NCBI GenBank assembly: GCA_012845835.1
Contig: JABAKD010000014.1
Span: forward strand, 6,855,396-6,919,395
Reading direction: 5' to 3'
DNA: 64,000 bases
Origin: Undaria pinnatifida
Taxonomy: Eukaryota; Sar; Phaeophyceae; Laminariales; Alariaceae
Position numbers and translations under genes: made by a program. Shown piece after piece: positions 7,716-41,000 of this stretch. Each line of letters begins with the position of its first letter. Position 1 is the first letter of the stretch. Under the pieces are notes generated by a model, which was not told the DNA's origin, made no database searches, and saw only the letters and a program-made list of their open reading frames with translations.

Positions 7716-7748
<33 letters not shown>

Positions 7749-14311: not shown

Positions 14312-17300
14312 CTACCCTATACCAGCTCGGAGCTCTGCTTCTCCCGCTTTCACCTTTGAGCTCTTAGCTCTGCTGACACGGGCCGTGCGGTTGGCGAAAG
14401 GCCTTCCTGGGCTGCTTCGCGTCCTCCGCGCTACGTAATCTACAACTCCCAAACAGCTCTTCTCGGAACGCATATCGGTTTTTCTCTTGGAATGTTTCTC
14501 TAAACGCGTTGTTTGTATTTTCCCTGATTTTTTTTCGGAACGCTTCTTGTATTTGTTGTCGGAAATTTTCTCGGATTTTTCTCTGGAATATTTGTCGAAA
14601 GTGGAATTTTTATCGGAATTTGTGTCGGACATTTTATCGAAACGCTTCTCCGGCTGCATCTCGCATTTTTTCTCGAGGCATTTCTCGGATTTTTCCCCGG
14701 GTTTTTTCTCCATTTTCTTCCCGCAATTCTTCTCGGAACGCTTCTCGGAACTATCTTCTGAACAATTCGTTACTTTGATAGGCGGAACTACCAATGTGAC
14801 CGGGGCGTCTTCTACTACTTCTGCTACCCTTGACAATAAAACCTGGGAGTCACCCCTTTGCGCGGAGAAGGTGACAGACCGGACGATAACAGGTTCCTCC
14901 TCCTCCTCCTCCTCTTCTCTCCCGCTCTTCTCAGCGTTGGAACTGTTATCGTCGCAGTCTTCGGCCGGGCATACCGTGGGGAGGAAGGACGTCCCGTACG
15001 CCAGCCCTGCTTTCAAGGGGAGAGAGAGGGACGGCGAGAGGGACGGAGAGGAAGGGAGGGGACAAAGGAGAGCTGGGGAGACGGGGGCGGAGGAGGAGGG
15101 GGGGGGGACAGGAAGAGGGGTTAGAAACGGTAAACAAAACGAAAAAGGGTTCCATTAAAAAACAATGCGAGAAAACTAGCAGTGACGTTGACTAGCCATG
15201 TTCGCGAACAGTTTTTGTTTTTTGGGGTGAAAGGCGCAGAAAAAATAAATAAAAGTTCGCTTGAAATTGAGAATACGAGAGAACTATGTATGAAAAATTG
15301 TTCGCCTCCAAAGCGGAATACGAGAAACTGAAAGCGACTATTGACTAGCCATGTTCCAAACAGAGGGGAGGGGGGTCAATACAGTAACAAACAGAAAAAA
15401 TGGGTGGTAGCTTGCAAAAGGAAATACGGGAAAACCAAAAAAAATACTGAGTAGTAAATATCGATATCGACTATCCGTGCTTGACAAGACGTGGAGAGGG
15501 TAAAAAACAGTGATTATGTAAAAATGTAGCAGTGCCACACACACTGACGTTTTTCGATTCAACCTATTAACGTCGATCGAGCGTTTCTCATACGAAATAT
15601 ATACCGCGTTGGAGAGGAATGGGGGGGGGTCAGTCTCGAGCAAACTAAAAGTACAAAAGAAAAACTACAGAAAAACAAGACGGAATATTGCTGCGGTAGT
15701 CGATTTTAGCAGTATCAAAGTAAAGCATGGTACTGTCGTGCTGGCCGTCCAACAATGATTGTCATAAACAGCTATTATTGCACAGAAAGAACAAACCCGT
15801 CCGGCGGAACAGATAGTCTATTTGTGCGTTTTTTGTATAATATACTAGATTGACTGTGTGTTACTTTTCATTCGCTACAGCAGCCAGGAAGGTCTAACTC
15901 GATTATACGAGGTACCCCGCAAGATTTCTTCATTCGCCCTTACTTTCACTTATCACGAATACCGCATACTGTTTGTGCTAATAATGGCCACAACTCATCG
16001 CGCTGTACGTACAACGCATGAAAGACAAGAAATACTGCATAATACTTACCCTCTCCCTGCACGACCGATGCTTCAAACATTCCCATGGGGCCACGCTGCT
16101 GGTCGACGATGTCCATGTCATCAAGGTCAACATCACCGCCATCATCATCATCATCTGCTGTCACAGGGCCTGAATAATAAGAATAAAGAGGGGAGGGGGG
16201 AGACAGGAAGGGGGGAGGGAGGAGAGGGGGAAGGGCAGGGATGGGGGGAGCAGAAAGGAGGGAGGGGAGGGGGGTGGTGGGAGGATAGATCAACTTTGGA
16301 GGGAAAGTGCTGAAGTTTCCATCATATATTCAGCAATGGAACAACTGTGGAGTAAACCATACCAGGTGCCAGGTACACGGTTGACGGTACTCGCCAAACA
16401 TCAAACCCATATCGATGTCGCTTGTGGAAATACTTCATCATCTATGTGTACCGGCGGCAATGAGCATGACCTGGGACGGGTACAGGACTAAAGCGTAACA
16501 TTAGTTCAAGAGGTTCAAAACTAAAGCCAGTGAACACAACAAAGAAAAAGACAAAACGACACACCATACCAGGCCCCCCGAGGTAATAATTGGATTGGAA
16601 AAAATGCAGGACGATGATTACACGACGAAAGGATGAATTAGTTTTGTGTAATGAAAAAAGGACGTTTTAGTGGATCAATGATTTACTATGGTTATAAAGT
16701 ACCCCCCCTGAAAAAAGCACGTTTTTGGATATTTTTCACTCGGCTTTAGGGTACCGCCCCTGTTCAGGGAAAAAAATGATATTTATTTCACTTGATTCTA
16801 GAGTACCCCCCCTGTCAAGGAATAATACATATGCGGAGTACCAAATTGTTTTTCATGTAAAGCACGCTGATTTACGCACGCAAAATTCACGTTCCGCAAA
16901 ACAATTTAACCTGTGTACAGCCAGGCGCAACAACACTAGTTCAAAATAATCAAACTCCAAGAGCCAAAATATTACGACACACACCGCGCAAACACCACCA
17001 CACTTCAGCCACAAGCATCCCACCGATGATAAATCACTCACCCGCTCGGCACGATGGCTTTTCGACCACCAACCCTGCACAGCTGTCACGGATGCCGAAG
17101 ACCATGTCCATGCCGCCGCCACCGCCACCGCCATCATCCTCCATCACAGCGCCCGGAGTGCAGGGAACCTCGAAGGACATCTCCTCCCCCTCCTCCTCCG
17201 CGGCGGCGCTACAGATGCTCGCTGGCGAGGTCGTGGGTGCGCGTGCTGAAGTCGATGCAGTATCTTGCTGATACACCGCCGCTGATGCTGACGCCGATGC

Positions 17301-19271
17301 TGGCGTCGTGGATGCTGATGCTGACGGTGTGGACGATGATGCTGACGGCGATGGCGTGCTGTCAAGTTCCACGACGCCACGAGCACTCGGCGTTGGCGGC
17401 GTGCTGCCAAGGTCCTCCACGGGCTTAGCACTCCACGGCACCCTAGCCAACTCTTCGCACAGGTCCTCAATGGCGAAGTCGAGCGAGATGCACTCATCAT
17501 CGAAGTCCTCCTGGTATTCCTTGCGGATCTTGGCGAGCTTAACGATGGCGGGGGCAGCCGCAGTCTGCATAATGCCTCCATCCTCGAAAGGATCGCCGCC
17601 CGCCAGATAGGACTCAATCACCACGCCGCAAATTGCTTTGGCCCCCCACTTGAACACCTTGAGGCCTATCTCAGGCTTGTTTGGCGGGCAGAGGCCTACA
17701 GCGGTCGGGAGGTGGGTGAGGCATTCGGTCGGGGTAAGCTCTGGTGGAGGCCCGACCGGCTCGAGCTCGACCGTGGCGGAGGAGAGGTCGACGAACTCGA
17801 AGGAAACCGCGCTGGTGTATTTTGGTTCTTCAAAATCGCTCGCGTCGTCGATTACATGGTAGTACTCGACTTCGTCAACGTCGCTCGAGGAATCGAACTC
17901 GTTCGAGTTGTCGTCGTAGTCGGGTTCGTAAACGTCGCCCGAGCCATCGAAGCCGTTCGAGTTGTCGTAGTAGTCGGATTCGTAAACGTCGCTCGAGCCA
18001 TCGAAGTTGCTGTCATCATCATCATCATCATCTCGAGAAAATCCGCAGACACCACCACCATCACCGTCAAGAGCTTCATCATCGCCATCGTAGGAGTCGG
18101 AGGAGATGTCGGAAGCGCACTCGTCAAGATTATCATCGCCATCGTCGCAACAAGAGTCAGCGGAGATGTCAGGAGCCCCACCCTCCCAGCCCTCACCATC
18201 ATCGCAAGAAGACCCAGCGGAGGTTTCAGAAGCACCACCATCGCCAAGATCATCAGCGCGAAACGAGTCGTCAGAGATATCGGACGCACGCTCGTCCCAA
18301 CTGCTGCCATCATCGAAGGAGGCGTGGTCGGGCTCGAGATCACCATGGCCGTTGGACTCGTAGTCATCGTCGCTGATGGTACACTCATGGTTGATGGAGT
18401 CGTCGCTGATGGTGGTGTCGTGGTCGTCGTTGTCGCTCGAGGTGTCGGATGCGTCCGTGTAGCGTACATCCTCAGCTTCGACAGTGCAGCACTCGTCGTC
18501 GCTGATGATGCTTTCGGCATGGTAGCCGTCGCCGATGGTGCTCTCGTTGTCGCCGTCAACACCGATGACGTTCTCGTCGTGAGAATCGTGAGTGATGGTG
18601 CTCTCGTCGTCCGAGTCGTCGTGGGAGATGTCGGATACGTCCGAGTACGAGCAGCGCCTGCGGTATGGGTACGAGGGTCGCAGGTTGGAAGGGCCAAACA
18701 ATTGATCAGATTCATAGACGACGGATGCGAGGGCTCGCGCAGACTCTGCTACTAACTCGTTTGTTTGCAGCCGTCATGCTGTGGATTGCTTCCAACACTA
18801 CGTGTTCGTAGTACTTACAGAGAGGCATGCCACCTCGAGAACGAAAGAAGCCACGCGGAGGGCTGCGGCGCCAAGTGATCAGATCGTCTACCACACAGCA
18901 GTCTGGACTGAACGGCATGCCGACGAACACAGCAAACACATCTATTTTGCAAACTGCTCTTGAAATTTCCAAACTGCCAATGTCGCTGCCATGACAGAAC
19001 ACAGAACAGCACAGCAGGGCTGCCAATCGTCTTGCCTGTACTTTTGCAGGTCGGATGACGAGCCCTCAAACTCCTCTGGTGCAGTGCTGCTGATGCTGGT
19101 GCTGCTGGTGCAGCTGGCAGGGGCGAGCTCGGCTTGGGTTGCTACCGAAGTGTCGCTCTGCTGTTGTTGGGTGGTCTGGGCGGGTTGCTGCAGCCCGGCT
19201 TTGAAAACAAACAGAAAAGGTCTAGCCTCGCTGATGAAGGCAGTGTTGCTAGTTGCGGATGTCGACGTCAT
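14312..19271 (-). CDS. Five-exon gene for a repeat-rich acidic/basic protein, copy B
   Basis: The exons are 19271-19042, 18985-18819, 18751-17042, 16169-16050 and 15006-14312, and they join to an exact 973-codon frame plus stop. Introns are 56, 67, 872 and 1043 bases, with donors GTACAG, GTAAGT, GTGAGT and GTAAGT and AG acceptors. All phases match, and unspliced reading meets stops. Residues 5-72 are one 68-residue repeat; about 150-430 are Asp/Ser-rich with 18-residue repeats (DGSSDVYESDYYDNSNG); about 490-575 form a conserved core (KVFKWGAKAICGVVIESYLA, then IRKEYQEDFDDE and LCEELARVPWSAK); about 575-690 are Pro/Ser/Ala-rich; exon 4 is Asp-rich; exon 5 has poly-Glu, then SEK-type Lys/Glu repeats and a basic end. 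I see no membrane span or known domain. The start is uncertain: 19271 is the first in-frame ATG, and ATGs at 19516/19513 just below the TATA box would need another intron. A nuclear or scaffold role is only a guess. Confidence 0.7.
15010..15122 (-). repeat. Long polypyrimidine tract before exon 5 (intron 4, copy B)
   Basis: On the minus strand a C/T-rich stretch of about 110 bases leads into TTGAAAGCAG and exon 5 (15006). The purine-rich plus strand carries runs of G. The tract is present at 262-375 and 36530-36642. Confidence 0.65.
16185..16277 (-). repeat. Long polypyrimidine tract before exon 4 (intron 3, copy B)
   Basis: Read on the minus strand, about 90 bases of almost pure C/T end in CTTATTATTCAG, directly before exon 4 at 16169. 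On the plus strand this is a G-rich purine tract with many GGG/GGGG runs. It is conserved at 1425-1522 and 37710-37805. Confidence 0.7.
16690..16830. repeat. Degenerate tandem repeat of about 65 bases in intron 3
   Basis: Three degenerate units each have GTACC(C)n CTG, an A run, TTTT and TTTCACT-(C/T)GGCTTTAG or TTTCACTTGATTCTAG. They lie within intron 3 of copy B. Equivalent repeats are at 1960-2080, 38220-38340 and 54480-54600. The unit D deletion joint falls at the edge of this block. Confidence 0.6.
17890..18010 (-). repeat. Tandem 18-codon acidic repeat inside exon 3
   Basis: Two to three repeats of a unit like FDGSSDVYESDYYDNSNG follow each other, then degrade into FDSSSDVDEVEYY. Similar blocks sit at the same place in copies A, C and D with in-frame length differences. 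The DNA is GTC/GAC-rich, so the opposite strand is also open but encodes a Val-rich string. Confidence 0.75.
19056..19259 (-). repeat. Coding minisatellite in exon 1, single 204-base unit (copy B)
   Basis: Copy B has one 68-codon unit where copies A and C have two. Its start resembles the first unit of the others and its end the second unit (ISSTAPEEFEGSS), as expected from unequal recombination between the two units. The reading frame is kept. Confidence 0.85.
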
Positions 19272-19558: not shown

Positions 19559-19582
19559 TATTTATAGCTTCGCGCCCATTGG
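19559..19582 (-). promoter_or_regulatory. CCAAT box plus TATAAATA promoter of gene copy B
   Basis: On the minus strand CCAAT (19582-19578) is followed by TATAAATA (19566-19559). The first downstream ATG pair is at 19516 and 19513, only about 43 bases on, and the first ATG in frame with exon 1 is at 19271. The pair of elements is at the same place in copies A and C. A second CCAAT lies on the opposite strand at 19530. Confidence 0.6.
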
Positions 19583-21866
19583 TTTGTCGCAGATCGTGAA
19601 TTCGACAACATTAACCCTTTTTGAGAAAAAAATGCAAACAAAACAACAAAACAGCAGCAGCAGCAGGGGCAACGCACATATTGGCGCATACAACACACAT
19701 ACATCTAGATACTTGGATTGTTTATGGTAGGGAGTCCTATCGTTGACGCTTTTTAATACTGTAACTGGTATGTTAGGAGCATTTCGTGGCGTTATATTGC
19801 GAAGAGTCTAACGTAAAGCTATACTGTATTTGGTATGTTAGAGACGTATCCTGGCGCTTTATGGGTGACTTGCCTTCTCAATAGCCCCCAGTTACTTTTA
19901 CCATCGAACTTCGAAGCACGACAGACGGGACATGCATTCGCCGGGCCCATCTGATACAAGGTAGAGTGGCGTGCGTCTTTGCTAGTTAGTGTTGTGCCTT
20001 GCCAGGAAGCATGAACCGTGCTAAAGGGGGAGCCCAAACTATCCCGGGGTAGTGCGCGACGCTATACTGTGTAGGACGAGGTCGCGGCAATCGATTTCCA
20101 CCACACTAAACTAGGGGCAAACGCTACTAGTAATATGGTCCTGGGGTCCTGGTAGATGGCACCGCACGCACACAGGTCACGATTGTAGTGTAGTATCGTG
20201 TAGGCTCACAGGCACAGCATGCATGCGGTAGCGCGGGTTGGGCGTCTTTTACGTGTTCCTCTCATGGTTATGGTCATCTCTCGGGGCGTTGACGATGTGG
20301 GACGTTTCGCTCGGTCATCTGTGGTACGGCTCATCTCTGGCGAGAGGGAGGGAGGCAAAATAGGAATACCAAAAAGGAGCTTGACAAGTTGGAGAGTTGA
20401 CCCTTTCTGCGGGAGGGCACGTTTTAGAAGGTGAGAGGTTTGGACTATGGTGCTTGCTGTGGGGTGTTTGGGACGTTCGTACCCAGGTGCGTTTGGCATT
20501 GCATGGTCACATACATCTTCTTGTGATGCGTGCTGGGTATGTACAAGTATGATTATAATATAATAGTAATCACTAATTGCACCAAAGCACCCGCAACTTT
20601 GGTTTGGTACATGAATGCGTGCGCCTGGATCCCGGACCCTGCGCATATGTTGCTTTGAAAATGCATGCATGCTGCATGCGATGTGCTGTTGCTGAGGGCT
20701 TGATTGTTTCATCGCTGAATGGCGACGACACCGCGTATCATATAGGCTTAGCTGTACTGCTATACCCGTGGTGAGAGAGGGGAGAGGCTTCGTGTCCTTT
20801 GAGCTGCCCCCTAGGATTTTTTTTTTTTCCTTTCTGTTCAATGTTTCCTTTTTTGTTTGGAGATCTTGTATCTTCCGTGTTGATGAGGCCTACCTCTCTG
20901 TCTAGACTGCTGTCCCTCGTACACTTCCGTACTTGCCCTGTGTTGGCCTCCCTCGCGTGTTCCCTGAAGACACCAAGACACAACTGGTACATGAGATTGG
21001 TTTAAGATGGCTTACCTCATGGCTGACTGCTGGACACTAGCTGACAACACACTGCTGTGACCTCACGAAGTTAACGTACTCGTGGTACGGCCTACGACGT
21101 ACTAAGACACACCGTCAACTTTTTTTTTTTTTTTTTTTTATCCTCCGGCGGATGGGGAAAAATAAAGCTTTAGCTCACCACACTTCCGCGTATTTTCATC
21201 CATCTATTTTTACGCGACTATATCTACGAGTATCGCATCTGCAGAGCTATATACAGCTACCGAGCTACGACTATACACCTGCAGCACTCGTGCAAGCAGC
21301 TATTCTGCAGAACCGCAGTAGATTGTAGAGCAGTCGAGGACCGCAGAGCGCCAAGCGCAGAGTGCGGAGTGCAGAGAAATTGCGGTTCAACCACGAACGG
21401 TTCGTTTCTCCCATCGTTTTTGGTGTAGCGACGAGCGACGTTGCAACGGGTCGACGTTGCGCTTGCGGCTAGCAACACCACGACGTTGCGGCTTGGAGAC
21501 GACACCCTGCAGACACCGCGATGACTTCACACGCCCGCGAGATTTGAAGCAATTTGCTGCACGTACGCGAGTAGCATGTTTGCGTCCATGTTTACATCTT
21601 CACTCGTCGTTTTCACAACGTGTGTGTGTTGTGTGTACACGCGCATCAGGTGTACCCGCGGACCCGTTTAGCACTGCTTTCCCGACATGGGTACAAATTA
21701 CTTGAACTTTACAGCTTTAACGAAAAAGGAAAAGTACAAACTATTAATAGAGAAAGTATATTTTCTTGGGAACGACGAACCCTCGAAGGCCGTACAGTAC
21801 CGGGGACCGGGGAGGCGGAAAGTATACCAAAGCGAGACTTTTGCTGCACACCGCTATGCATGATGC
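19583..21866. other. Intergenic part of unit B upstream of the main gene
   Basis: No convincing gene is seen. It contains the MITE-like block (20016-20160), a minus-strand frame of about 210 codons at 20206-20841 that begins at TTG and has no recognisable feature, and an 81-base insertion with a T run (21120-21200). Confidence 0.5.
21120..21200 (-). mobile_element. 81-base insertion with 20-T run, absent from unit C
   Basis: Unit C reads GTCAACCATCTATTT where unit B has 81 extra bases that begin with 20 T. Read on the minus strand the extra segment ends in poly(A) and contains CTTTATTTTTCC upstream, like a short processed or truncated retro-insertion. No clear target-site duplication is seen. 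A deletion in unit C is the alternative. Confidence 0.4.
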
Positions 21867-22263
21867 ATGATGAGGCGGCCTGAAGTATTGTCCGTGCTGC
21901 TGACTGCCGCTGTCTCAGCGACGACCACTGCTGTTGAGAGCTTCCGGCTCCCTTCCACACCGACGAGTCCTGGATTCGGCAGGCACTGCAAAGCACCAAG
22001 GATGGCGACAGCTGGCCGACCAGAAGGGCTCGAGGTGAGAAACACGAATAAATGCACCAAGAATGTGTTCCCGGTGTTGAATGTGTTACCGGTGTTGTAC
22101 AGCAGTACCTGGTACCTCGTGGTACAACTCGTGTCTTCAGTCTGTTCTTGCCGCCCACCTACATCCTGCACAACCAGTACCAGTATCAGCATCCGTGCTT
22201 GTGCCTCTCCTAGAGGGACGATACTACACCACGTACATGTGCACCGTACACCACAGCAACTGA
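21867..22263 (+). CDS. Putative two-exon small secreted or plastid-targeted protein, copy B
   Basis: Exon 1 (21867-22034, 56 codons) starts [20 protein letters not shown], a hydrophobic signal-peptide-like leader, followed by AVESF and a Ser/Thr/Pro/Arg-rich stretch. It ends at a strong donor (GAG|GTGAGA). A phase-matching exon 2 (22141-22263) follows GTGTCTTCAG, encodes about 40 residues ([20 protein letters not shown]...) and ends in TGA. A signal peptide followed by Phe and a Ser/Arg-rich region is known for plastid import in algae with secondary plastids, but the mature part is unrecognised and very short. The intron joint and the coding status are inferred. The same structure is open in unit C. 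Confidence 0.35.
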
Positions 22264-22716
22264 CTATTAATATATCAGAGATGTACCATGACCACTTACT
22301 GAGGTTTGCAGTCAGCGTTGCCTGCCATGAAAAGCCAGTGGTTATGGTGCGTATGGTGTACATGTATGTACTGCTGAAATATGAGCACAATACGAAGTTC
22401 ATCTACCGCGGATGTACTCAAGCGTTGCAATCCCTTTCTTAATCAGCGCTGCCCCAAGCAGGCGAAATTATTACCTGGTATGGCTCTTCTCCCCTGGAAC
22501 TGGGAATGTGTACCATACCATGACTTCACGAGTCGAAACCCATAATTTCCATAAAGCAAGAAAAATAGGAGAGAAAGCACAATCCAGCCGGGAAGCTCTG
22601 TGGTCACACACTAAAAGACAGCTACGACAGATATTATAAAAAATGAAAATACACTCCAGATATGTACGAGTCGTAGTGGCCGTGCGCGATCGGAGTATCA
22701 CACACAGCTTGCAAAG

Positions 22717-22872
22717 ATGAGTTTCGACAAAATATTCGATCTCACGGCTGGAGTGTATTTAATTTTTATAATATGTAGTGGCCGTGCAGCGCCAAACAAA
22801 CGCAATGAGTACGAGGGCGAAACGCAAGCAAGCCAGCACACCAAACTACGCAAGGAAGAAAGAAACGAATAA
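22717..22872 (+). CDS. 51-codon single-span membrane peptide ORF, unit B
   Basis: The ATG at 22717 follows CAGCTTGCAAAG. The peptide starts MSFDKIFDLTAGVYLIFIIC, one hydrophobic span, then a charged hydrophilic tail (APNKRNEYEGETQ, then LRKEERNE). The unit C copy keeps the frame with two replacements (Gln to Pro, Lys to Asn). Its N-terminus resembles the ORFs at 12996, 34515 and 59744. No function can be assigned. It could be a first exon or a repeat-borne ORF. Confidence 0.35.
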   Translation: MSFDKIFDLTAGVYLIFIICSGRAAPNKRNEYEGETQASQHTKLRKEERNE

Positions 22873-24891
22873 AATGGAAGAAACAAAAAAGGGAAAATGG
22901 AAAAAAAGAGGGCAAAGGAACACAGGCGGGGGGGAAGAAGAGCTACGCAGGAAACAATAAAAGCGAAAAGCACGAATAAAAAATACGGTCAGTGTTGTGA
23001 TGTGTGCTCTATGCTATCAATACCACTACTTGTATTAATAGGATAATATATTATTACGTGCTGATTGTTGCTGTTCTGTTGCACGTAGAACTACCGTATA
23101 TGATGAGGTATACCACACCCCCGGTGATAATGTTTGGTGCATCCGAAAACTTCCTCCCCTGGTTTATTTTAATCCGGGGCAGGATATATAACATACCCCG
23201 GTGATAAAGTGGGTGATTGTTTTGGGATTTGATAAAGCGTACCAGCATCACCGGTGTGGTTTTCTGTATGCATGCATTCATTGCACGTATGAAAGATACC
23301 GTGGTACTGGAGGTAACTTTGCCGGTCTCAACCCCAAACCATGCCAGGTGGACAGGTGGATGATGCCTTCACCGACCTCCACCCACAAAAGTAATACGCA
23401 GGTACCATATAAAACACCGAACACATTTAACTTTGTAGACGGCGTTGGGCTGTTTTCTGTGCTCTTGTGCTTTTGTTTTACAAATCTCGAGAGGGCGTAG
23501 CTCGAGAGGGCGTTCAACCAGCCCAAATGTAGCCCTTGTTGTTGTTGTTCTCACATTAACTCGCATAATCAAGTCACTGCTCGCGCCTGGAAAAACCGAC
23601 TTACACCGCTTGCGACCCAAGAAAGACTACCACGTATATATTGCACGTAGTACCTATCACTACGCAAACGCACGACAGACGCAAGTCAATTGGAAAAAAT
23701 GAAACAAAGAAAAGATAAAAAAGCGAGAAACGAAAAAGGAAAGGGAAGAAAAGAAAAGAAAAGAAAAACAACACTAGCCCACGCTAAGGGTCGGTCCTAA
23801 CGATACGTACAGCGCTTCAGTTTTTGATGGAATTTCGGCGTTTTACCGAAATCTGCGAAAGGTAAATCTTCACGAGTACGAACCTCAATTGGTTCGCAAA
23901 ACAATCGTCCACCCGGCACAGAACTGTCACCATAGCAGCAACGCTCGCGGAAGACACCCGCGTGGTTGTCCCAGTGGAGTTGGCCTTACTCGTAGGCACG
24001 TGTCGGTGCCTTGGGGAGTGAAATCCATCCCCGACTCTTCGCACTACCACGCCGACGAGATAAAAGTTTCAGTTATTGCCGTCAGCGAGCTCGTTCGGTC
24101 GGCCGCCTCGGTGCGATCACTTTGTCAAGTCGACGACTCGAGCTCAGAAGCTCACTGCGCCTTCTGCAATCAGCCATGACCTGCCAATGACCTTGGGAAC
24201 GACCCTGCTGAGCCTCGTGCGCTCGCGAGTGGTGGCACAACTCGAGCGGTGTCGCTGCCCAATCCTCTACGCCCTTGTACCTAAATTGTAGTTTTTTCCC
24301 TTGAAAGAACTGAAAAACTTAAACGCCAGTTTTGGCGGGGGATGAAAAATGTAGGTTTTTCCCGAAATGATTTCGGGAAAATCCGAAGCTTTCGGTAAAA
24401 AACGAAATGATGGCTTCGTTAGAAACGACCCTAAGGCTCTGACTCGAGGGCAACTTCGCGGCGCGTTTTGGAAAATCCGCGAAAAATGTGCGGACCACCT
24501 CAAAACTCGAACTACTCCTGTACATCTGGTGCTTTATCTCGTATAGTATGTGGGTGGTGAACATGCTGTACATGCTACACAGAGCTCGTTCCATGCACGA
24601 CCCGACCCGACCCGCGAAAAGCCCTGATTGTCTAAAACCAGCACGAGTGTCGTACAGGTACTTGCGTTGCAGTTCGGACGCATCCCCTATCCCCTGCTAC
24701 CCATCGCAAACATTGTGGCACTCCGAACCAAGCGCTCAATGTGTTCGTGCATCGCTCGCATTCCAGTCCCCCTTCCCCTCTCCCTTCCCATCCACCCTTC
24801 TCCCCCCACGCCTTTCCTCTGCCGCTCCCCGCTCCCGCCCCGCCCCCTCCCACACGAAACCTCGTCGCTGAAGCCCTTCTACTGCGCTAAG
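22873..24891. other. Unit B stretch with no confident gene
   Basis: It holds a purine-rich A/G stretch (23690-23775) and a block (23530-23700) that recurs diverged at 58387-58740. Several open frames on both strands lack starts, splice sites or recognisable features. Confidence 0.5.
23530..23700. repeat. Dispersed repeat also found at 58387-58740 (unit B copy)
   Basis: The strings TTCTCACATTAACTC and AATAATCAAGT, then CGCGCCTG-AAAAACCGACT, AAGAAAGACTACCACGTATA and TTGCACGTAGTACCTATC, occur in the same order outside the array near 58.4-58.7 kb, where a further insertion separates the halves. An A/G-rich tail follows in both places. Confidence 0.65.
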
Positions 24892-25157
24892 GAAACCTCG
24901 GCGTGTTCGGGGCCTGGCGAAACGCCATTGAGTTCAACTCTATCCCTTCCATAAGCGACAACGTTCCTGGGGTCTACGCGAAGATGAAGCTAAGGGTGCA
25001 GCTCGTCGCTCCGGTGCCCGAGGTGCGCGAACCGTATTCGCTCGTGATCTGCGCTTTTTTTTTTGCGGTGGGCGCTGTATTACCTTTTTTAGTGTTGTTT
25101 TATATATTTGACAGAAAGCACACGGACGCCGTGCGGCAACACGATAGTCTAGGTTAA
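24892..25157 (+). CDS. Probable terminal exon of an unrecognised gene, unit B
   Basis: After a C/T-rich stretch (24770-24890) and the possible acceptor GCGCTAAG, a frame of 88 codons reads NLGVFGAWRNAIEFNSIPSI, then VYAKMKLRVQLVAP and a hydrophobic segment (AVGAVLPFLVLFYIF) before DRKHTDAV and a stop. The composition is more protein-like than its surroundings. No ATG starts it, so it would be a last exon with one membrane span. In unit C a one-base difference in the T run shifts the frame after CAFF. Upstream exons could not be fixed. Confidence 0.3.
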
Positions 25158-25383
25158 ATATGTGAATCAAGCGGATTTCGTGCAACAGCAGCAGTAGTAC
25201 AAGCATCATGATAAGTAGTGGAGGCAGCAGTAGCGGCAGTAAAGTAGACCCTTAAAATGACGAAAGCTCGAATTTCAAAGTCCAGCGGTGTGTTCTCCAT
25301 GCAAGAACCGGTGTCAATAGTTGTTCTTTGATATGTGTTCGATGGTACGGTCTCCTGAAAACAATATAGATATAAAATGACAT

Positions 25384-25570
25384 CAGGGACGTCTATAACC
25401 TGGTCCCGGTGATAACCCGTGTACCGGTTGTATCCCGAATATTATAACGGATGCCGTTTGTAACAGGGTTATAGTCGATATCGGTCATAAGCGGTTATTA
25501 TAACCGATGCCGGTTATTATAACCGACGCCGGTTATAACCGGGCTATGGCCGGTACCGAGCTCGTCGGCT
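25384..25570. repeat. Palindromic minisatellite GGTTATTATAACCG (unit B)
   Basis: Successive degenerate units such as CGGTTATTATAACCGATGC are themselves inverted repeats (GGTTA...TAACC), so the block can form small hairpins on either strand. It is repeated in unit C at 49604-49790. No gene overlaps it. Confidence 0.7.
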
Positions 25571-27169
25571 AGGGCACTCGGGCGACGGTAGTAATGTTTT
25601 CGCCTCTCGTATCCTCTGAATAAAAACGCCTCCGCATTCAACGGAACCCCTACGTTTTTACCATCACCGGTACCGAACTCGTCGGCTAGGGTATCGGGGC
25701 AACTTTGGTTACTTTTCGTCTCCCCTGTCCCCTAAATTCAAACGCCTGCGTATTCAATGGAACCCCTACAATTTGTTCAGCAGCAAAGCAGCAGAGCTCG
25801 TTATTTGACATCAACTTATTAGCGGACATAACCGCTAGATGCCGGAGAACGCTGATTTCGGGTTAAAACCCGTAAGTGCCGACCTCAGCACCAGGTTTCA
25901 GACACCCCTGGCTAGCATTTCACCTCTTCATTGCACTAATAGCAATCGGTGGTTCTACTTCTCTGTCTCGTCGTATGTCCTTATCGCGGCGCCTTTTTTT
26001 TCGCTCGCACCGCATTCAACAGGAGGGTGTGGACGTGGAGGCGATGAAGAGGTTTTTCCCGTAAGGCCAGCTGTTGCCCGTGGAGTTCCCAGCGGGAGGC
26101 ATGAGGGCGTTCAGTGGCATCGAATTACCCGAGATGGGAGGTAACGCACTTGGCTAAAGTAATAAAGGTATTCAGCCAAGTCGAGACGGGGGGTCCCTCT
26201 GTTTGTTGCCCCTGTAGCTTCGAAAGTCGCATGCGCTCGAAAGAACAGTTGCCCGCTCTTGCAGCTTCGTGTTTGTTGAAAAGTAGATGAAAGCGATGGA
26301 AGTAGTACAGTAGGATTGGGCAGTATAGACCAAGGAACCGACTTCTCCTACGAGTACACAATGAGAGTTGACTCTGGCTTTGTCCTGGCCACTCACTCAC
26401 ACGCGGGATGCTGGGGTGTTGCGTCTCTGTGATTATCAATAGTTGTATGCTGTCCGTTGGATGCCTTCTGACTTAAGTGGGGATGGAACCGTTCATTCAG
26501 GTAGGCGATACGCCTGCCAGGCAAAACGGGGACAAGAGTGCTATCATAAATTATAACGCCGCTACGGGGGAGGGGGGATACCATAGCATTTTTAGCCAGT
26601 GAACCATAGGGGCAACCTTTTCTTGGTCTGCAGCACCTTCTGTGTAATGGCTGTCACATCGCTCAATCGCCAAGCCTTAACTAACCCGTGTACGACCCAA
26701 AAATAAATATCCCACGACAATTCCAAGTATTTTGTACTCAATTTTTTTGTCGCAGTTTTTCAGGGTTAATAGCCTGCTCACTGAGCCATTGCGTTCCCTT
26801 TTTCCTTCATTTTTTGTTTTTTTCTTTGCTTCTTATGTAGGGCTGTTTTCGGTTGCGCTTTGTTTCCCCGGTAGATTGGTTTCTGTGGACGATTTTGTTG
26901 GTTAGTGTTCCGCCTCTTCGTGTTGCGCTTTGTAGGCGTTCGATTTGTGGCGGCTGCTTTCATCGCACGATCCTTCCTTCCTTCCTTCGTTCCTTCCTTC
27001 CTTCCTTCCTTTCTCCCTCCCGCCGTTGATAGAGGCTTTCCGCTTTTTCTCCGTCGATTCATCGAAGCAAACAAGCTGAAAAATTATGTGCTGCTGCAGC
27101 TGTGGTGTTTCACAAGCCATAAGCGGCCGCAGTACGCACTGGCCCGATGTTTTACCGCCCCCGGTCTCC
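25571..27169. other. Unit B stretch with no confident gene
   Basis: It contains a two-fold degenerate direct repeat (25545-25630 and 25665-25770, both with ACCGAGCTCGTCGGCTAGGG-like and GGAACCCCTACGTTTTT-like parts). No coding evidence is seen. Confidence 0.45.
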
Positions 27170-27440
27170 ACTCCCTTGCTTTCCCCTCATCCCCTTGACT
27201 CCCCTGCTCCCACCCCCCTTTGGCCCCAACCCTCCCCCACCCCTTAGAGTCATCCCTCTACCGCCCTCTTACATCCCTCCCTCCACCCCCTCTTGCATCC
27301 CCACTCACCCACCCACCCACCCCATGCAGTTCCCTTCCGCCCACCCTTACACCCCTCCCCCCATCCCCCCTTGCACCCCTTCCCCCCTTACCTCCCCTTC
27401 ACCCCTTTCTTTTCACCTCTTTCTCCCCCCCGCTTGAAAA
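27170..27440. repeat. Pyrimidine-rich low-complexity tract, unit B
   Basis: A C/T tract of about 270 bases, preceded by a CCTT tetranucleotide microsatellite (26972-27012), contains degenerate CCACCC and CCCCTTCACC repeats. Unit C has the same tract with length changes at 51400-51670. Proline-rich open frames across it are compositional. Confidence 0.85.
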
Positions 27441-29161: not shown

Positions 29162-29227
29162 AGTAGTAGTAGTCGTTATTGTAAGTCTAGCATTAATAGT
29201 AGTAGTAGTAGTAGTAGTAGTAGTAGA
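29162..29227. repeat. AGT/ACT trinucleotide microsatellite (unit B)
   Basis: Same locus as 7683-7749, shorter by a few bases, on the minus-strand upstream side of the exon-like segment. Confidence 0.9.
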
Positions 29228-29916
29228 GTATGCGACACGTGCTACGACGGTTATAGTGCAACACTTTCTTTCTGAAGAGGCTGCTCAGGACTGATTTGAT
29301 ATACTACTCTTTACCTCACCCAAAAAAAACATTTGGAATTATCTAAGCTGAAAATGGAGCCCGATAACGAAACCATGGCCTAGGCGTAAAAATTATTCAC
29401 AGAGTAAGAAACAAGATTGGCCCTCCACCGAATTTGAAATATGGAATCCCGTCATTCAGAAAAGAAAAAAATGCCAAAATTGGCCACCTCCATCCTCGTC
29501 ATGCTTAGCTCATGGATGCTGAAGATGATGCCGGCCCTGCGTTGAGTGTGGGATGCACCACCAATTAATCGACACGTACGACAACAACAGCGAGTGATAG
29601 TGTGAATTCGTGTTGGTTTTTTGGTCCAAAAGCGCGAGCGCGAAAACGTCTATAAACCCCTAAGTTCTAACCCGCGCCTCGATACTAGTGGGTAGCACTT
29701 TTCGGCCTACAGTCTAAACATTTTCCAAATGGCGGGGAACCTTGACTCAAAATCGTCGGAAACAAGCTGGTTGTGCTTTGTATTGGACGCATGGTACGGC
29801 AGAGGTATCAGTTTTCGTCTGAAATGAATGGTTTCTCAATGACGGGGCTCCTTATTAACACAAAATCGTCGGAAATAGGCCTTTTTTCTCATTACTCTCG
29901 TTAGTGTACCTTGGCC

Positions 29917-30123
29917 ATGGGACTTCTTCATCCGGTAGCCGTGTTATTTTACTCCAAATCAGTTTGTGGGGGAGGTTTTAAGCTAGCTCCCAAATTGAGG
30001 AATCTCAGAAGAAAAGTGGTGCACCTTTATCGTAGCACGTGCGCGTCATTGCAAGCCCACGGGGTTGTTGGTCAGATTGCACTTTCAGTTTTCGCTCACG
30101 GTTTCTTCTTCGAATGTTGTTAA
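29917..30123 (+). CDS. Small ORF of 68 codons, unit B (unrecognised)
   Basis: Equivalent of 8438-8644 with an identical predicted peptide and one silent change. See that entry for composition. There is no independent evidence that it is expressed. Confidence 0.25.
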   Translation: MGLLHPVAVLFYSKSVCGGGFKLAPKLRNLRRKVVHLYRSTCASLQAHGVVGQIALSVFAHGFFFECC

Positions 30124-31323
30124 TATTATTAGTCACACATTAAATAAGATATGAGCTCCTCTGAAGTGAATAGAGAAAAAACGTCGTGCATACGTCTACC
30201 GTATGATAGCATGTGTGTGCGTTCTGGCACGGTCAACAAGACGGCCAACCATATCACTTTTACAGCGAACAGTGCTCTCACGCCAACACGCGTGCCGTAC
30301 AACAATGCAACTTATTGGCATCACATATTAAGCCGTTAGACAAAATAATTTGGCGCTTCAGACGAAAAAATGTCGGAAGAATATGACTAGTTGTGGTTAC
30401 AGCTTCGGCCACACCAAGCAGGCGGGGGCTATCGGGGTGTCCGCACAGCACTGCAAGGACCTGGGTACCATGTGCTACCTCCGATATGTGCAAAGCATGG
30501 TGATACGCGTGCTGTTGCTCGCTCTTACTACAGTAGTAGGCTCTCTGAAAAGACCGCCTTATGATTCGGTTTTGTTTTTTTTTGGGGGGGGAGTCGTTGT
30601 ACGTGGGTCCCAAAAACAAAAAAGGATAAAAGGAACGATGTATAACAAAGTTGCTCGAGCTGTACCCTGTTTTGCGTCGTGCCTTCTGTGTCTCGCAATC
30701 GGTACACACGTGCGCACGACGCCACCAGCAATAGATACCGCTCCCCACTTTCCACAGCCGGCGGGGCGGGAGCGGGATGCCGCAGGGGAGGGAAAGGGTG
30801 TCTTCCCTTCTTCCGCCCGGTACATGCCTTTCCGTGTTTATACACCACATGCTAGACATATGGCGTGAATACGAGGACCGGTGGGTGGGTCGGGGTTGGG
30901 ATTGGGTGGAGGCGTGGGGGGGGAGGGGTTGGTTTTGGGGGGGGGTGAGGGTTGACGCGGGCAGGGGGAGAGCCTACTAGCAACTCACAGGTTGCAGCCA
31001 CATTTTGGTCATCTGTAGCTGAAAGAGCCGAGACAGACACACCGCCAAACCCTAACCCCACACACTATTGCACCTCTATCCCTAACCCCCAATCATTTCC
31101 TCAGTTAGACGGCTTCATAGGGCACAGCTGCAGATCGGTGTTGCGTTTACCGTGCACTCTGCCGTGCGTTCCTGCTTTCGTAGGCTAGCTTTGATATATA
31201 CGGAGTACATACTATAGTCTATATATAGTCTATATCGCACGTCCGAGATTTTCCCAATGCTTAGGAGTGGGAAAAAAAACATGGCATTTCGTGTATGTGC
31301 GCGCCGAACGAATCTATAGGGCA

Positions 31324-35831: not shown

Positions 35832-38800
35832 CTACCCTATACCAGCTCGGAGCTCTGCTTCTCCCGCTTTCACCTTTGAGCTCTTAGCTCTGCTGACACG
35901 GGCCGTACGGTTGGCGAAAGGCCTTCCTGGGCTGCTTCGCGTCTTCCGCGCTACGTAATCTACAACTCCCAAACAGCTCTTCTCGGAACGCATATCGGTT
36001 TTTCTCTTGGAATGTTTCTCTAAACGCGTTGTTTGTATTTTCTCTGATTTTTTTTCGGAACGCTTCTTGTATTTGTTGTCGGAAAATTTCTCGGATTTTT
36101 CTTTGGGATATTTGTCGAAAGTGGAATTTTTAGCGGAATTTGTGTCGGATATTTTGTCGAAACGCTTCTCCGGATGCATCTCGCATTTTTTCTCGAGGCA
36201 TTTCTCGGATTTTTCCCCGGGTTTTTTCTCCATTTTCTTCCCGCAATTTTTCTCGGAACGCTTCTCGGAACTATCTTTTGAACAATGCGTTACTTTGATA
36301 GGCGGAACTACCAATGTGACCGGGGCGTCTTCTACTACTTCTGCTACCCTTGACAATAAAACCTGGGAGTCACCCCTTTGCGACGAGAAGGTGACAGACC
36401 GGACGATAACAGGTTCCTCCTCCTCCTCCTCCTCTTCTCTCTCGCTCTTCTCAGCGTTGGAACTGTTGTCGTCGCAGTCTTCGGCCGGGCATACCGTGGG
36501 GAGAAAGGACGTCTCGTACGCCAGCCCTGCTTTCAAGGGGAGAGAGAGGGACGGCGAGAGGGACGGAGAGGGAAGGAGGGGACAAAGGAGAGCTGGGGAG
36601 ACGGGGGCGGAGGAGGAGGGGGGGGGGAGAGGAAGAGGGGTTTGAAACGGTAAACAAAACGAAAAAGGGTTCCATTAGAAAACAATGCGAGAAAACTAGC
36701 AGTGACGTTGACTAGCCATGTTCGCGAACAGTTTTTGTTTTTTGGGGTGAAAGGCGCAGAAAAAATAAATAAAAGTTCGCTTGAAATTGAGAATACGAGA
36801 GAACTATGTATGAAAAATTGTTCGCCTCCAAAGCGGAATACGAGAAACTGAAAGCGGCTATTGACTAGCCATGTTCCAAACAGAGGGGAGGGGGGTCAAT
36901 ACAGTAACAAACAGAAAAAATGGGTGGGAGCTTGCAAAAGGAAATACGGGAAAACCAAAAAAAAAACTGAGTAGTAAATATCGATATCGACTATCCGTGC
37001 TTGACAAGACGTGGAGAGGGTAAAACACAGTGATTATGTAAAAATGTAGCAGTGCCACACACACTGACGTTTTTCGATTCAACCTATTAACGTCGATCGA
37101 GCGTTTCTCACACGAAATATATACCGCGTTGGAGAGGAATGGGGGGGGGTCAGTCTCGAGCAAATCAAAAGTACAAAAGAAAAACTACAGAAAAACAAGA
37201 CGGAATATTGCTGCGGTAGTCGATTTTAGCAGTATCAAAGTAAAGCATGGTATTGTCGTGCTGGCCGTCCAACAATGATTGTCATAAACAGCTATTATTG
37301 CACAGAAAGAACAAACCCGTCCGGCGGAACAGATAGTCTATTCGTGCGTTTTTTGTATAATATACTAGATTGACTGCGTGTTACTTTTCATTCGCTACAG
37401 CAGCCAGGAAGGTCTAACTCGATTATACGAGGTACCCCGCAAGATTTCTTCATTCGCACTAACTTTCACTTATCACGAATACCGCATACTGGTTGTGCTA
37501 AAAATGGCCACAACTCATCGCGCTGTACGTACAACGCATGAAAGACAAGAAATGCTGCATAATACTTACCCTCTCCCTGCACGACCGATGCTTCAAACAT
37601 TCCCATGGGGCCACGCTGCTGGTCGACGATGTCCATGTCGTCAAGGTCAACATCACCGCCATCATCATCATCATCATCTGCTGTCACAGGACCTGAATAA
37701 TAAGAATAAAGAGGGGAGGGGGGAGACAGGAAGGGGGGAGGGAGGAGAGGGGGAAGGGCAGGGATGGGGGGAGCAGAAAGGAGGGAGGGGAGGGGGGTGG
37801 TGGGAGGGTAGATCAACTTTGGAGGGAAACTGCTGAAGTTTCCATCATATATTCAGCAATGGAACAACTGTGGAGTAAATCATACCAGGTGCCAGGTACA
37901 CGGTTGACGGTACTCGCCAACATCAAACCCATATCGATGTCGCTTGTGGAAATACTTCATCATCTATGTGTACCGGCGGCAATGAGCATGACCTGGGACG
38001 GGTACAGGACTAAAGCGTAACATTAGTTCAAGAGGTTCAAAACTAAAGCCAGTGAACACAACAAAGAAAAAGACAAAACGACACACCATACCAGGCCCCC
38101 CGAGGTAATAATTGGATTGGAAAAAATGCAGGACGATGATTACACGACGAAAGGATGAATTAGTTTTGTGTAATGAAAAAAGGACGTTTTAGTGGATCAA
38201 TGATTTACTATGGTTATAAAGTACCCCCCCTGAAAAAAGCACGTTTTTGGATATTTTTCACTCGGCTTTAGGGTACCGCCCCTGTTCAGGGAAAAAAATG
38301 ATATTTATTTCACTTGATTCTAGAGTACCCCCCCTGTCAAGGAATAATACATATGCGGAGTACCAAATTGTTTTTCATGTAAAGCACGCTGATTTACGCA
38401 CGCAAAATTCACGTTCCGCAAAACAATTTAACCTGTGTACAGCCAGGCGCAACAACACTAGTTCAAAATAATCAAACTCCAAGAGCCAAAATATTACGAC
38501 ACACACCGCGCAAACACCACCACACTTCAGCCACAAGCATCCCACCGATGATAAATCACTCACCCGCTCGGCACGATGGCTTTTCGACCACCAACCCTGC
38601 ACAGCTGTCACGGATGCCGAAGACCATGTCCATGCCGCCGCCACCGCCACCGCCATCATCCTCCATCACAGCGCCCGGAGTGCAGGGAACCTCGAAGGAC
38701 ATCTCCTCCCCCTCCTCCTCCGCGGCGGCGCTACAGATGCTCGCTGGCGAGGTCGTGGGTGCGCGTGCTGAAGTCGATGCAGTATCTTGCTGATACACCG

Positions 38801-41000
38801 CCGCTGATGCTGACGCCGATGCTGGCGTCGTGGATGCTGATGCTGACGGTGTGGACGATGATGCTGACGGCGATGGCGTGCTGTCAAGTTCCACGACGCC
38901 ACGAGCACTCGGCGTTGGCGGCGTGCTGCCAAGGTCCTCCACGGGCTTAGCACTCCACGGCACCCTAGCCAACTCTTCGCACAGGTCCTCAATGGCGAAG
39001 TCGAGCGAGATGCACTCATCATCGAAGTCCTCCTGGTATTCCTTGCGGATCTTGGCGAGCCTAACGATGGCGGGGGCAGCCGCAGTCTGCATAATGCCTC
39101 CATCCTCGAAAGGATCGCCGCCCGCCAGATAGGACTCAATCACCACGCCGCAAATTGCTTTGGCCCCCCACTTGAACACCTTGAGGCCTATCTCAGGCTT
39201 GTTTGGCGGGCAGAGGCCTACAGCGGTCGGGAGGTGGGTGAGGCATTCGGTCGGGGTAAGCTCTGGTGGAGGCCCGGCCGGCTCGAGCTCGACCGTGGCG
39301 GAGGAGAGGTCGACGAACTCGAAGGAAACCGCGCTGGTGTATTTTGGTTCTTCAAAATCGCTCGCGTCGTCGATTACATGGTAGTATTCGACTTCGTCAA
39401 CGTCGCTCGAGGAATCGAACTCGTTCGAGTTGTCGTCGTAGTCGGGTTCGTAAACGTCGCTCGAGCCATCGAAGCCGTTCGAGTTGCCGCAGTAGTCGGA
39501 TTCGTAAACGTCGCTCGAGCCATCGAAGTTGCTGTCATCATCATCATCATCATCTCGAGAAAATCCGCAGACATCACCACCACCATCACCGTCAAGAGCT
39601 TCATCATCGCCATCGTAGGAGTCGGAGGAGATGTCGGAAGCGCACTCGTCAAGATTATCATCGCCATCGTCGCAACAAGAGTCAGCGGAGATGTCAGGAG
39701 CCCCACCCTCCCAGCCCTCACCATCATCGCAAGAAGACCCAGCGGAGGTTTCAGAAGCACCACCATCGCCAAGATCATCAGCGCGAAACGAGTCGTCAGA
39801 GATATCGGACGCACGCTCGTCCCAACTGCTGCCATCATCGAAGGAGGCGTGGTCGGGCTCGAGATCACCATGGCCGTTGGACTCGTAGTCATCGTCGCTG
39901 ATGGTACACTCATGGTTGATGGAGTCGTCGCTGATGGTGGTCTCGTGGTCGTCGTTGTCGCTCGAGGTGTCGGATGCGTCCGTGTAGCGTACATCCTCAG
40001 CTTCGACAGTGCAGCACTCGTCGTCGCTGATGATGCTTTCGGCATGGTAGCCGTCGCCGATGGTGCTCTCGTTGTCGCCGTCAACACCGATGACGTTCTC
40101 GTCGTGAGAATCGTGAGTGATGGTGCTCTCGTCGTCCGAGTCGTCGTGGGAGATGTCGGATACGTCCGAGTACGAGCAGCGCCTGCGGTATGGGTACGAG
40201 GGTCGCAGGTTGGAAGGGCCAAACAATTGATCAGATTCATAGACGACGGATGCGAGGGCTCGCGCAGACTCTGCTACTAACTCGTTTGTTTGCAGCCGTC
40301 ATGCTGTGGATTGCTTCCAACACTACGTGTTCGTAGTACTTACAGAGAGGCATGCCACCTCGAGAACGAAAGAAGCCACGCGGAGGGCTGCGGCGCCAAG
40401 TGATCAGATCGTCTACCACACAGCAGTCTGGACTGAACGGCATGCCGACGAACACAGCAAACACATCTATTTTGCAAACTGCTCTTGAAATTTCCAAACT
40501 GCCAATGTCGCTGCCATGACAGAACACAGAACAGCACAGCAGGGCTGCCAATCGTCTTGCCTGTACTTTTGCAGGTCGGATGACGAGCCCTCGAACTTCT
40601 CTGGTGCAGTGCTGCTGATGCTGGTGCTGCTGGTGCAGCTGGCAGGGGCGAGCTCGGCTTGGGTTGCTACCGAAGTGTCGCTCTGCTGTTGTTGGGTAGT
40701 CTGGGCGGGTTGCTGCAGCCCGGCTTTGAAAACAAACAGAAAAGGTCTAGCCTCGCCGATGAAGGCAGCGCTGCTAGTTGCGGATGATGAACCCTTGGAC
40801 TCCTCTGACGCTGTGCTGCTTGTGCCGGTGCTGCCGATGCAGCTGGCAGGAGCGAGCTCGGCTTGGGTTGCCTCTGAAGTGTCGCTCTGCTGTTGTTGGG
40901 TAGTCTGTTCGGGGTGCTCTATCCCGGCCTTGAAAACAAACAGAAAAGGTCTAGCCTCGCTGATGAAGGCGGCGTTGCTAGTTGCGGATGTCGACGTCAT
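35832..41000 (-). CDS. Five-exon gene for a repeat-rich acidic/basic protein, copy C
   Basis: The exons are 41000-40567, 40510-40344, 40276-38564, 37692-37570 and 36526-35832. They give an exact frame of 1043 codons plus stop. Compared with copy B there are 68 more residues in exon 1 (two repeat units), one more Asp in exon 3 (3 bases) and one more Asp in exon 4 (3 bases). All length changes are multiples of three and all splice sites are kept, as expected for a maintained gene. Domain order is as in copy B. The start is uncertain in the same way (an alternative ATG near 41245 would need an extra intron). Exon 5 differs from copy B more than exons 1-3 do. Product function is unknown. Confidence 0.7.
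40581..40988 (-). repeat. Coding minisatellite in exon 1, two 204-base units (copy C)
   Basis: Units 40988-40785 and 40784-40581 each encode 68 residues that differ mainly in the Gln region and in the last ten residues (ASEESKGSS against APEKFEGSS). Confidence 0.85.

What the first reader, a model, noticed from the sequence alone, without database searches (positions are those of the whole stretch)
14312..41000. Undescribed five-exon gene family with exact splice-phase agreement
Independent donors and acceptors on the minus strand join five segments into 973- and 1043-codon frames in two copies. Every length difference between the copies is a multiple of three, and the acidic exon stays open in the diverged copy D. 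I recognise no known domain. The core LKVFKWGAK...VPWSAK is the part to search with.
Basis: partly seen in the sequence, partly recalled or inferred. Interest (0 to 1): 0.75.

Follow-up and report, generated by a model that had tools for sequence, protein, structure and literature searches.

The report
Tandem five-exon gene family
The predicted spliced gene looks real: it is a tandemly repeated gene for a largely disordered protein of unknown function in a 511-megabase eukaryotic genome, probably the kelp Undaria, and its copies keep an open reading frame although their amino-acid sequence is hardly constrained.

Summary
In copies B and C five minus-strand segments join into open frames of 973 and 1043 codons with GT-AG introns. 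A search not told the model gives 897 and 899 codons on the minus strand, 326 and 327 on the plus. In B it recovers introns 2 and 3 and the intron-4 donor; exon 1, with donor GTACAG, is the weakest part. The window's genome (511 Mb, probably Undaria pinnatifida by size) holds at least 14 five-exon copies, 13 on one contig, plus fragment D; 5 of 14 are fully open.

Across the 14 copies, exonic indels are multiples of three in 29 of 69 events against 21 of 145 in introns and flanks (23/32 against 13/102 without the three gappiest copies). Nonsense changes are 2 against 14.3 expected. Yet nonsynonymous to synonymous change is 0.96 of neutral.

No Pfam, NCBIfam, PHROGs or PDB relative was found. 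Function is inferred only: a disordered protein with an acidic array and a lysine-rich tail. Eukaryotic relatives and transcripts could not be searched, so 'undescribed' is untested.

The parts
19042..19271 (-). Copy B exon 1 (start codon at 19271); one 204-nt unit, hybrid of the two units seen in C
   Evidence: of 27 sites that differ between the C units, B matches unit 1 at 3 (two at the 5' end, one at the 3' end) and unit 2 at 24. Donor GTACAG is non-consensus.
18819..18985 (-). Copy B exon 2; donor GTAAGT
   Evidence: Length differs by a non-multiple of three in 4 of 14 copies.
17042..18751 (-). Copy B exon 3: acidic Asp/Ser array (residues about 166-455), core (about 456-585), Ser/Ala/Thr/Pro linker; donor GTGAGT
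   Evidence: stop-free in its own phase in 9 of 14 copies
16050..16169 (-). Copy B exon 4; donor GTAAGT
   Evidence: stop-free in 13 of 14 copies
14312..15006 (-). Copy B exon 5: poly-Glu stretch, then a Lys/Arg-rich tail with SEK-type repeats; stop codon at 14312-14314
   Evidence: no premature stop in its own phase in 11 of 14 copies
40567..41000 (-). Copy C exon 1, two 204-nt (68-codon) units
40344..40510 (-). Copy C exon 2
38564..40276 (-). Copy C exon 3
37570..37692 (-). Copy C exon 4
35832..36526 (-). Copy C exon 5
4327..4760 (-). Copy A exon 1 (two 204-nt units)
4104..4270 (-). Copy A exon 2
2291..4036 (-). Copy A exon 3, frame-broken as assembled
1297..1414 (-). Copy A exon 4
1..258 (-). 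Copy A exon 5, cut by the window edge; the rest lies on contig C20 just left of the window
54848..56627 (-). Copy D: exon-3-like fragment with the GTGAGT donor, without exons 1, 2, 4, 5
   Evidence: stop-to-stop frame 54813-56627, 605 codons
44012..46586 (+). Insertion of about 2.6 kb present in the C unit and absent from the B unit, holding the reverse-transcriptase part of ORF 43701-45212; not part of the gene
   Evidence: matches 21196-22372 / 42844-44011 and 22370-30155 / 46587-54434; PF00078, E 1.3e-22

Best explanation
This is a real, spliced, protein-coding gene family spread by local segmental duplication: at least 14 copies, 13 of them in three clusters on one contig with neighbours about 15-32 kb apart, in a 511-Mb eukaryotic genome that is probably the kelp Undaria pinnatifida (inferred from size). 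Shown here: gene structure from sequence, strand, minimum copy number, avoidance of stops and of frame-breaking indels, and very weak constraint on amino-acid identity. Inferred: unequal crossing-over and gene conversion keep reshaping the array. Inferred with much lower confidence (about 0.3): the product is a mostly disordered intracellular, perhaps nuclear, protein whose acidic Asp/Ser-rich array and lysine-rich tail bind partners (histones, other basic proteins, nucleic acid) through charge and composition, around one more slowly changing core.
For: Structure: model verified; three of three GTRAGT sites in B are model donors; splice search not told the model recovers introns 2 and 3 and the intron-4 donor; no in-frame Met between residues 130 and 527, so the acidic exon needs coding sequence upstream. 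Copies: the intron 1 - exon 2 - intron 2 stretch matches 14 places and exon 5 protein the same 14 loci, in 19 rows; the five exons are found in all 14; splice dinucleotides are kept except the exon-2 donor in c7312 and the exon-1 donor in c7343. Frame: internal repeat offsets are multiples of three in 29 of 29 exon pairs against 38 of 114 in seven control stretches; exonic indels 29/69 against 21/145 (P 2e-5), or 23/32 against 13/102 (P 5e-10) without A, C2 and c6564; nonsense changes 2 against 14.3 expected; sense exon 5 has 0 against 6.1 and its antisense 6 against 6.25, while 38 overlapping non-coding stop-free stretches have 86 against 98. Rate: 0.162 changes per site in exon 3 and 0.125 in exon 4, against 0.316 and 0.451 in introns 3 and 4; the core is slowest, 0.096. 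Recombination: B exon 1 is a hybrid of the two C units; B-C divergence in the gene is patchy, 0 to 3.4% per 500 nt. Composition: residues 166-455 net charge -94, residues 831-973 net +23, both on the disordered side of the charge-hydropathy line.
Against: Nonsynonymous/synonymous is 0.96 of neutral and the codon phases of 610 changes are flat (202, 192, 216); B against D also flat (37, 37, 41). B-C exons are no more conserved than introns. Exons 1, 2 and 5 (0.267, 0.265, 0.296 changes per site) are as fast as introns 1 and 2 and close to intron 3 and flanks. Nine of 14 copies have a frame break as assembled, and in exon 2 only 2 of 5 indels are multiples of three (three copies left out). Synonymous sites of exon 3 are slow as well, which protein selection alone does not explain (B-D pS 0.10 against 27% in aligned intron 3). 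For the acidic stretch stop avoidance is not significant (1 against 2.8, P 0.22) and no better than antisense. For the inferred role: CK2-type sites are not enriched (22 against 19.6); the largest 19-residue hydropathy mean in residues 1-165 is 1.64, borderline for a membrane segment (cut-off of about 1.6 recalled), so a membrane or secreted protein is not excluded; the core model is unusable (pLDDT 40.8). No transcript evidence.
Confidence: 0.85

Rival explanations
1. A decaying family (overlaps with the best explanation, since the gene is real in both): the gene was functional until recently and most or all copies now drift, the frame signals being a legacy of past selection.
For: Nonsynonymous/synonymous near neutral; only 5 of 14 copies fully open; B-C exons and introns diverge equally.
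Against: Nonsense changes among the present copies are avoided, 2 against 14.3, and exonic indels are enriched for multiples of three. The most diverged copy, c7343, has an exon 5 without premature stop at 15.3% nucleotide difference from B, though its exons 2 and 3 do have stops. Part of the frame breakage is in copies with many one-base gaps: exonic one-base events fall from 26 to 4 when A, C2 and c6564 are left out.
Confidence: 0.25
2. The plus strand is the coding strand and the minus frame is its shadow.
For: Long antisense ORFs exist (17712-18755, 347 aa; 14487-15158, 223 aa). The antisense of the acidic exon also has few nonsense changes, 1 against 3.4 (P 0.15), and in B-D its stop count is unchanged, 7 and 7.
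Against: The antisense frame has 7 stops in B over the exon-3 stretch aligned to D, where sense has none. Antisense exon 5 shows no stop avoidance (6 against 6.25), sense does (0 against 6.1). Strict-donor splicing gives 326 codons on plus, 897 on minus; GTRAGT sites within gene B are 1 on plus and 3 on minus.
Confidence: 0.04
3. The gene is cargo or a reading frame of a mobile element or integrated virus that made the array.
For: A partial reverse transcriptase lies in unit C; the unit is repeated many times.
Against: That insertion is in unit C and not in unit B. An inverted-repeat search of 13000-43000 gave two weak pairs, none bounding the unit. Of 45 further ORF queries (about 41 distinct, only part of the ORFs of 100 aa or more, none shorter) none reached a Pfam cut-off, the best chance-level match being E 0.0025. 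No relative of the core in viral contigs. The gene has introns and 13 of 14 copies are on one contig.
Confidence: 0.05
4. The slowness of exon 3 reflects gene conversion between copies (or lower mutation) rather than selection on the protein. This concerns only the rate and can hold together with the best explanation.
For: Low divergence also at synonymous sites and flat codon phase; in B-D the divergence rises inside exon 3, at about 17225, not at the exon end; patchy identity.
Against: Does not explain avoidance of stops and of frame-breaking indels; exon 4 is also slow, though on only 96 sites.
Confidence: 0.5

Closest known systems
Nopp140 / treacle type nucleolar proteins (features recalled; papers seen as a listing only)
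   Same: Acidic serine-rich stretch, Ser/Ala/Pro-rich linker and lysine-rich stretch in a mostly disordered protein
   Different: No Pfam hit at E <= 1 for the 973-aa protein, so no SRP40_C or LisH hit; CK2-type sites not enriched over composition
Acidic histone chaperones and nucleolin (recalled)
   Same: Long acidic disordered region and a basic segment in one protein
   Different: No nucleoplasmin, NAP or RRM hit
Locally amplified gene families evolving by unequal crossing-over and gene conversion (general knowledge)
   Same: Clusters, patchy identity, change of unit number inside exon 1, no domain match
   Different: Absence from other lineages is not shown; frame kept with near-neutral amino-acid change

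Membership tests
Nopp140/treacle | SRP40_C or LisH domain (recalled) | tested here: not met
   0 Pfam families at E <= 1 for the spliced B protein
Nopp140/treacle | CK2 sites concentrated in acidic stretches (recalled) | tested here: not met
   22 [ST]xx[DE] sites against 19.6 in 1000 shuffles, P 0.255
Nucleolin and histone chaperones | RRM, nucleoplasmin or NAP domain (recalled) | tested here: not met
Spliced protein-coding gene | Frame-keeping indels and stop avoidance across copies | tested here: met
Spliced protein-coding gene | Excess of synonymous over nonsynonymous change | tested here: not met
   0.96 of neutral overall; core 0.71, P 0.16
Spliced protein-coding gene | Spliced transcript | not testable with these tools
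   No RNA data on hand
Orphan (lineage-restricted) gene family | No homologue outside the lineage | not testable with these tools
   Only prokaryotic, viral, PDB and profile collections could be searched
Mobile element gene | Element domain in the unit outside the reverse-transcriptase insertion | tested here: inconclusive
   45 ORF queries without a hit above cut-off, but shorter ORFs and part of the longer ones were not tested
Mobile element gene | Terminal inverted repeats around the unit | tested here: not met
   region 13000-43000, minimum 24 nt

The most novel reading that the evidence does not exclude
A tandem gene family in which selection keeps the reading frame, the composition and a short core, but not the amino-acid sequence: a natural set of at least 14 paralogs of a disordered, oppositely charged protein, probably in a kelp, that changes at nearly the neutral rate while stops and frame shifts are removed.
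Probability: 0.3. Interest if true: 0.5.

Novelty: new member of a known kind. Interest (0 to 1): 0.33.

Why it matters
It adds a multi-copy gene without recognisable domain, well supported by sequence tests, to what is probably a brown-algal genome. It also offers a set of paralogs in which constraint on frame, on composition and on sequence can be separated, which existing kelp RNA-seq and population data could test. A dN/dS test alone would have called this family neutral, although the stop and indel tests say otherwise.

Tried and rejected
Frame agreement between B and C as proof of selection: rejected, the copies are too similar. The open frame in D as proof: weak, 9.75% of neutral simulations. 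Codon-usage scoring trained on the reverse transcriptase: inconclusive; the model frame was best in exons 4 and 5, not in exons 1-3. Simulated stop gain in diverged internal repeats: weak, P of no stop 0.13, 0.16 and 0.43 for three repeat blocks and 0.027 for exon 5. CK2 enrichment: not found. AlphaFold on the core (alignment of 3): pLDDT 40.8, so no fold search was made. Relatives of the core: none confirmed in viral contigs or genome contigs. Relatives of the reverse transcriptase: none in phages or viral contigs. Papers: no paper holds any of four peptide words; listings only for Nopp140 terms (2 papers), orphan genes + tandem duplication + brown algae (3), Undaria genome (12 hold the terms, 6 listed), Undaria + orphan genes + tandem (1); none for brown algae + lineage-specific genes + intrinsically disordered. 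Only PMC7058681 was opened (passages). Rfam and tRNA scans of the window: nothing. A first stop-avoidance count used copies chosen for being open and was circular; it was replaced by the count on all 14 copies (columns with more than 3 gaps skipped).
Full report
WHAT WAS CHECKED. The B model translates without a break to 973 aa, with GT-AG introns of 56, 67, 872 and 1043 nt (from the coordinates); C gives 1043 aa. The window is a local array: self-comparison shows the gene region at 1-4760 (A), 14312-19271 (B) and 35832-41000 (C), with an exon-3-like fragment D at about 54848-56627. Gene starts are 14.5 kb (A to B) and 21.7 kb (B to C) apart. An insertion of about 2.6 kb with part of a reverse transcriptase (PF00078, E 1.3e-22) is in the C unit and not in the B unit.

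IS IT A GENE. B and C are too alike for their agreement to mean much: exons differ at 33 of 2922 sites, introns at 23 of 2037. So I used other tests. First, a search told nothing of the model, using only GTRAGT donors and CAG/TAG acceptors, finds 897 codons for B and 899 for C on the minus strand, 326 and 327 on the plus strand, 119-212 on ten strands of five other 5-kb segments, 471 and 324 on one that overlaps gene C, and 91-358 in 20 block shuffles. The search starts at ATG 18918 in exon 2, so exon 1 rests on the frame, the in-frame 204-nt unit and the conserved sites. Within gene B the minus strand has three GTRAGT sites, all model donors. Second, inside the exons every internal repeat pair found is offset by a multiple of three: 29 of 29 (exon 1 of C 1, exon 2 of B 0, exon 3 of B 11, exon 5 of B 7, exon 3 of D 10), against 38 of 114 in seven control stretches; low-complexity pairs were skipped, and B and D pairs are related, so they are not independent. 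Third, no in-frame methionine occurs between residues 130 and 527, so the acidic exon must be joined to coding sequence upstream or start at another codon.

THE WHOLE GENOME. The window lies at 6,855,396-6,919,395 of contig C20 in a genome of 511,146,479 bases in 68 contigs. The Undaria pinnatifida assembly is reported as 511,280,173 bases in 114 scaffolds, GC 50.14%, PacBio (PMC7058681; passages seen). The size match suggests that species, but the contig count differs and no name was given, so this is inference. The intron 1 - exon 2 - intron 2 stretch of B matches 14 places: 13 on C20 (seven at 6.43-6.57 Mb, three at 6.86-6.90 Mb, three at 7.29-7.34 Mb) and one on C2. Exon 5 protein finds the same 14 loci, in 19 rows; the tool calls such counts lower bounds. 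All 14 were fetched and all show the five exons. Splice dinucleotides are kept except the exon-2 donor of c7312 and the exon-1 donor of c7343, which is GC. Five of 14 (B, C, c6450, c6472, c6493) are open from start to stop; nine are not. Read exon by exon in the model phase, exon 1 is stop-free in 12, exon 2 in 12, exon 3 in 9, exon 4 in 13 and exon 5 in 11 of 14.

SELECTION. In the window, pN/pS over all exons is 0.89 for A-B, 0.94 for A-C and 0.58 for B-C, and for exon 3 0.62 and 0.61 for B and C against D; with the observed spectrum the B-D synonymous count is not unusual (32 against 27, P 0.17). On all 14 copies 610 changes were inferred in coding columns. Nonsense changes were 2 (both on the c7343 branch) against 14.3 expected from the same mutation spectrum placed at random; none of 1000 trials was as low. 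Nonsynonymous changes were 432 against 428 and synonymous 176 against 167.5, a ratio 0.96 of neutral, with flat codon phases 202, 192, 216. By region the ratio is 0.71 in the core (37 changes, P 0.16), 0.84 in the linker, 0.76 in exon 4, 0.98 in exon 1, 1.05 in the acidic array, 1.07 in exon 2, 1.13 in the first part of exon 5 and 0.86 in the basic tail. Controls: 38 overlapping stop-free non-coding stretches of 40 codons or more show 86 nonsense changes against 98 expected; sense exon 5 shows 0 against 6.1 and its antisense ORF 6 against 6.25; for the acidic stretch sense (1 against 2.8) and antisense (1 against 3.4) do not differ, so the strand there rests on splicing and the other exons. 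Distinct indel events are multiples of three in 29 of 69 exonic against 21 of 145 non-coding cases for all 14 copies (P 2e-5), and 23 of 32 against 13 of 102 without A, C2 and c6564 (P 5e-10). I left those three out because of their one-base gaps (exonic one-base events fall from 26 to 4), which favours the hypothesis, so the all-copy figure is the safer one. Exon 2 is an exception, 2 of 5 with the three copies left out. Rates per site are 0.162 and 0.125 in exons 3 and 4, 0.267, 0.265 and 0.296 in exons 1, 2 and 5, 0.232 and 0.224 in introns 1 and 2, 0.316 and 0.451 in introns 3 and 4. Together: the frame is kept, the sequence hardly. Gene conversion between copies breaks the tree assumption and probably inflates the number of changes, but should not remove nonsense ones selectively (inference).

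ASSEMBLY NOISE. The A unit between about 6.5 and 13 kb matches the B unit with 0-4 mismatches per 500 nt but many deletions of 1-4 nt, while the B and C genes differ by mismatches and only four indels. Of 44 gaps in the A unit in that alignment (6179-14311) only 14 lie in homopolymers of three or more, so uncorrected long-read error is likely but not proven. Frame breaks of A should not be read as biology without better data.

D. Exon 3 of D differs from B by 7.3%, its adjoining intron, where aligned, by 27%, but the rise begins inside the exon near 17225, codon phases are flat, and 9.75% of neutral simulations keep it stop-free. It lacks exons 1, 2, 4 and 5 and is best called a fragment.

HOW IT MAY WORK. 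The protein has an N-terminal Ser/Thr/Gln-rich segment that can be doubled (B carries a hybrid single unit, pointing to unequal crossing-over), an acidic array (26% Asp, 16% Ser, net -94), a core of about 130 residues, a Ser/Ala/Thr/Pro linker and a basic tail (20% Lys, net +23). Charge-hydropathy places array and tail on the disordered side and residues 1-165 and 456-580 on the folded side. The largest 19-residue hydropathy mean in residues 1-165 is 1.64, borderline for a membrane segment, and no signal-peptide tool was run, so location is open. I infer an intracellular, perhaps nuclear, protein acting through charge; confidence about 0.3. The core was predicted with too low confidence to compare (pLDDT 40.8).

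COMPARISON AND NOVELTY. No Pfam match for the spliced protein or D, none in NCBIfam, none of note in PHROGs (best E 0.083) or PDB sequences (best E 0.027, to an entry named sc-apCC-6-SLLA). Four peptide words are in no paper of the library. Whether other brown algae have it could not be asked here. I file it as a new member of a known kind: a locally amplified gene family without recognised domain. The unusual point is selection for an open frame with near-neutral amino-acid change.

Noticed in passing
window 1-14300 (A unit): Few mismatches but many 1-4-nt deletions against the B unit, suggesting uncorrected long-read errors in this part of the assembly.
   Followed up: partly
window 44012-46586: Insertion with a partial reverse transcriptase (PF00078) and two related 158-nt stretches (45324-45481, 45905-46062), in the C unit and not in the B unit.
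   Followed up: partly
window 61470-63540: Two tandem copies of about 1 kb and part of a third, with tRNA-like A-box and B-box motifs seen by eye, possibly tRNA-derived SINEs; ARAGORN and Rfam report nothing.
   Followed up: no
window 22715-22739, about 46932-46956, and 36145-36169: A 25-nt AT-rich sequence found in the B and C units between genes, with an 88% inverted match inside exon 5 of C; by eye its flanks look like a small inverted-repeat element.
   Followed up: no
L032 (G000:C2:13035800-13042300): The only copy found off C20: no mismatch to B in introns 1-3 and the 500 nt upstream, but frame-breaking gaps in exons; recent conversion or a misplaced, poorly corrected contig.
   Followed up: partly
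L025 and L026 (c6564 and A): Closest relatives in the non-coding tree although about 295 kb apart and in opposite orientation, each about 15 kb from its neighbour: looks like an inverted duplication of a cluster end.
   Followed up: no
whole window: GTRAGT is commoner on the minus than on the plus strand (45 against 20 in 64 kb), only partly because of the gene copies; no further spliced gene was identified.
   Followed up: partly
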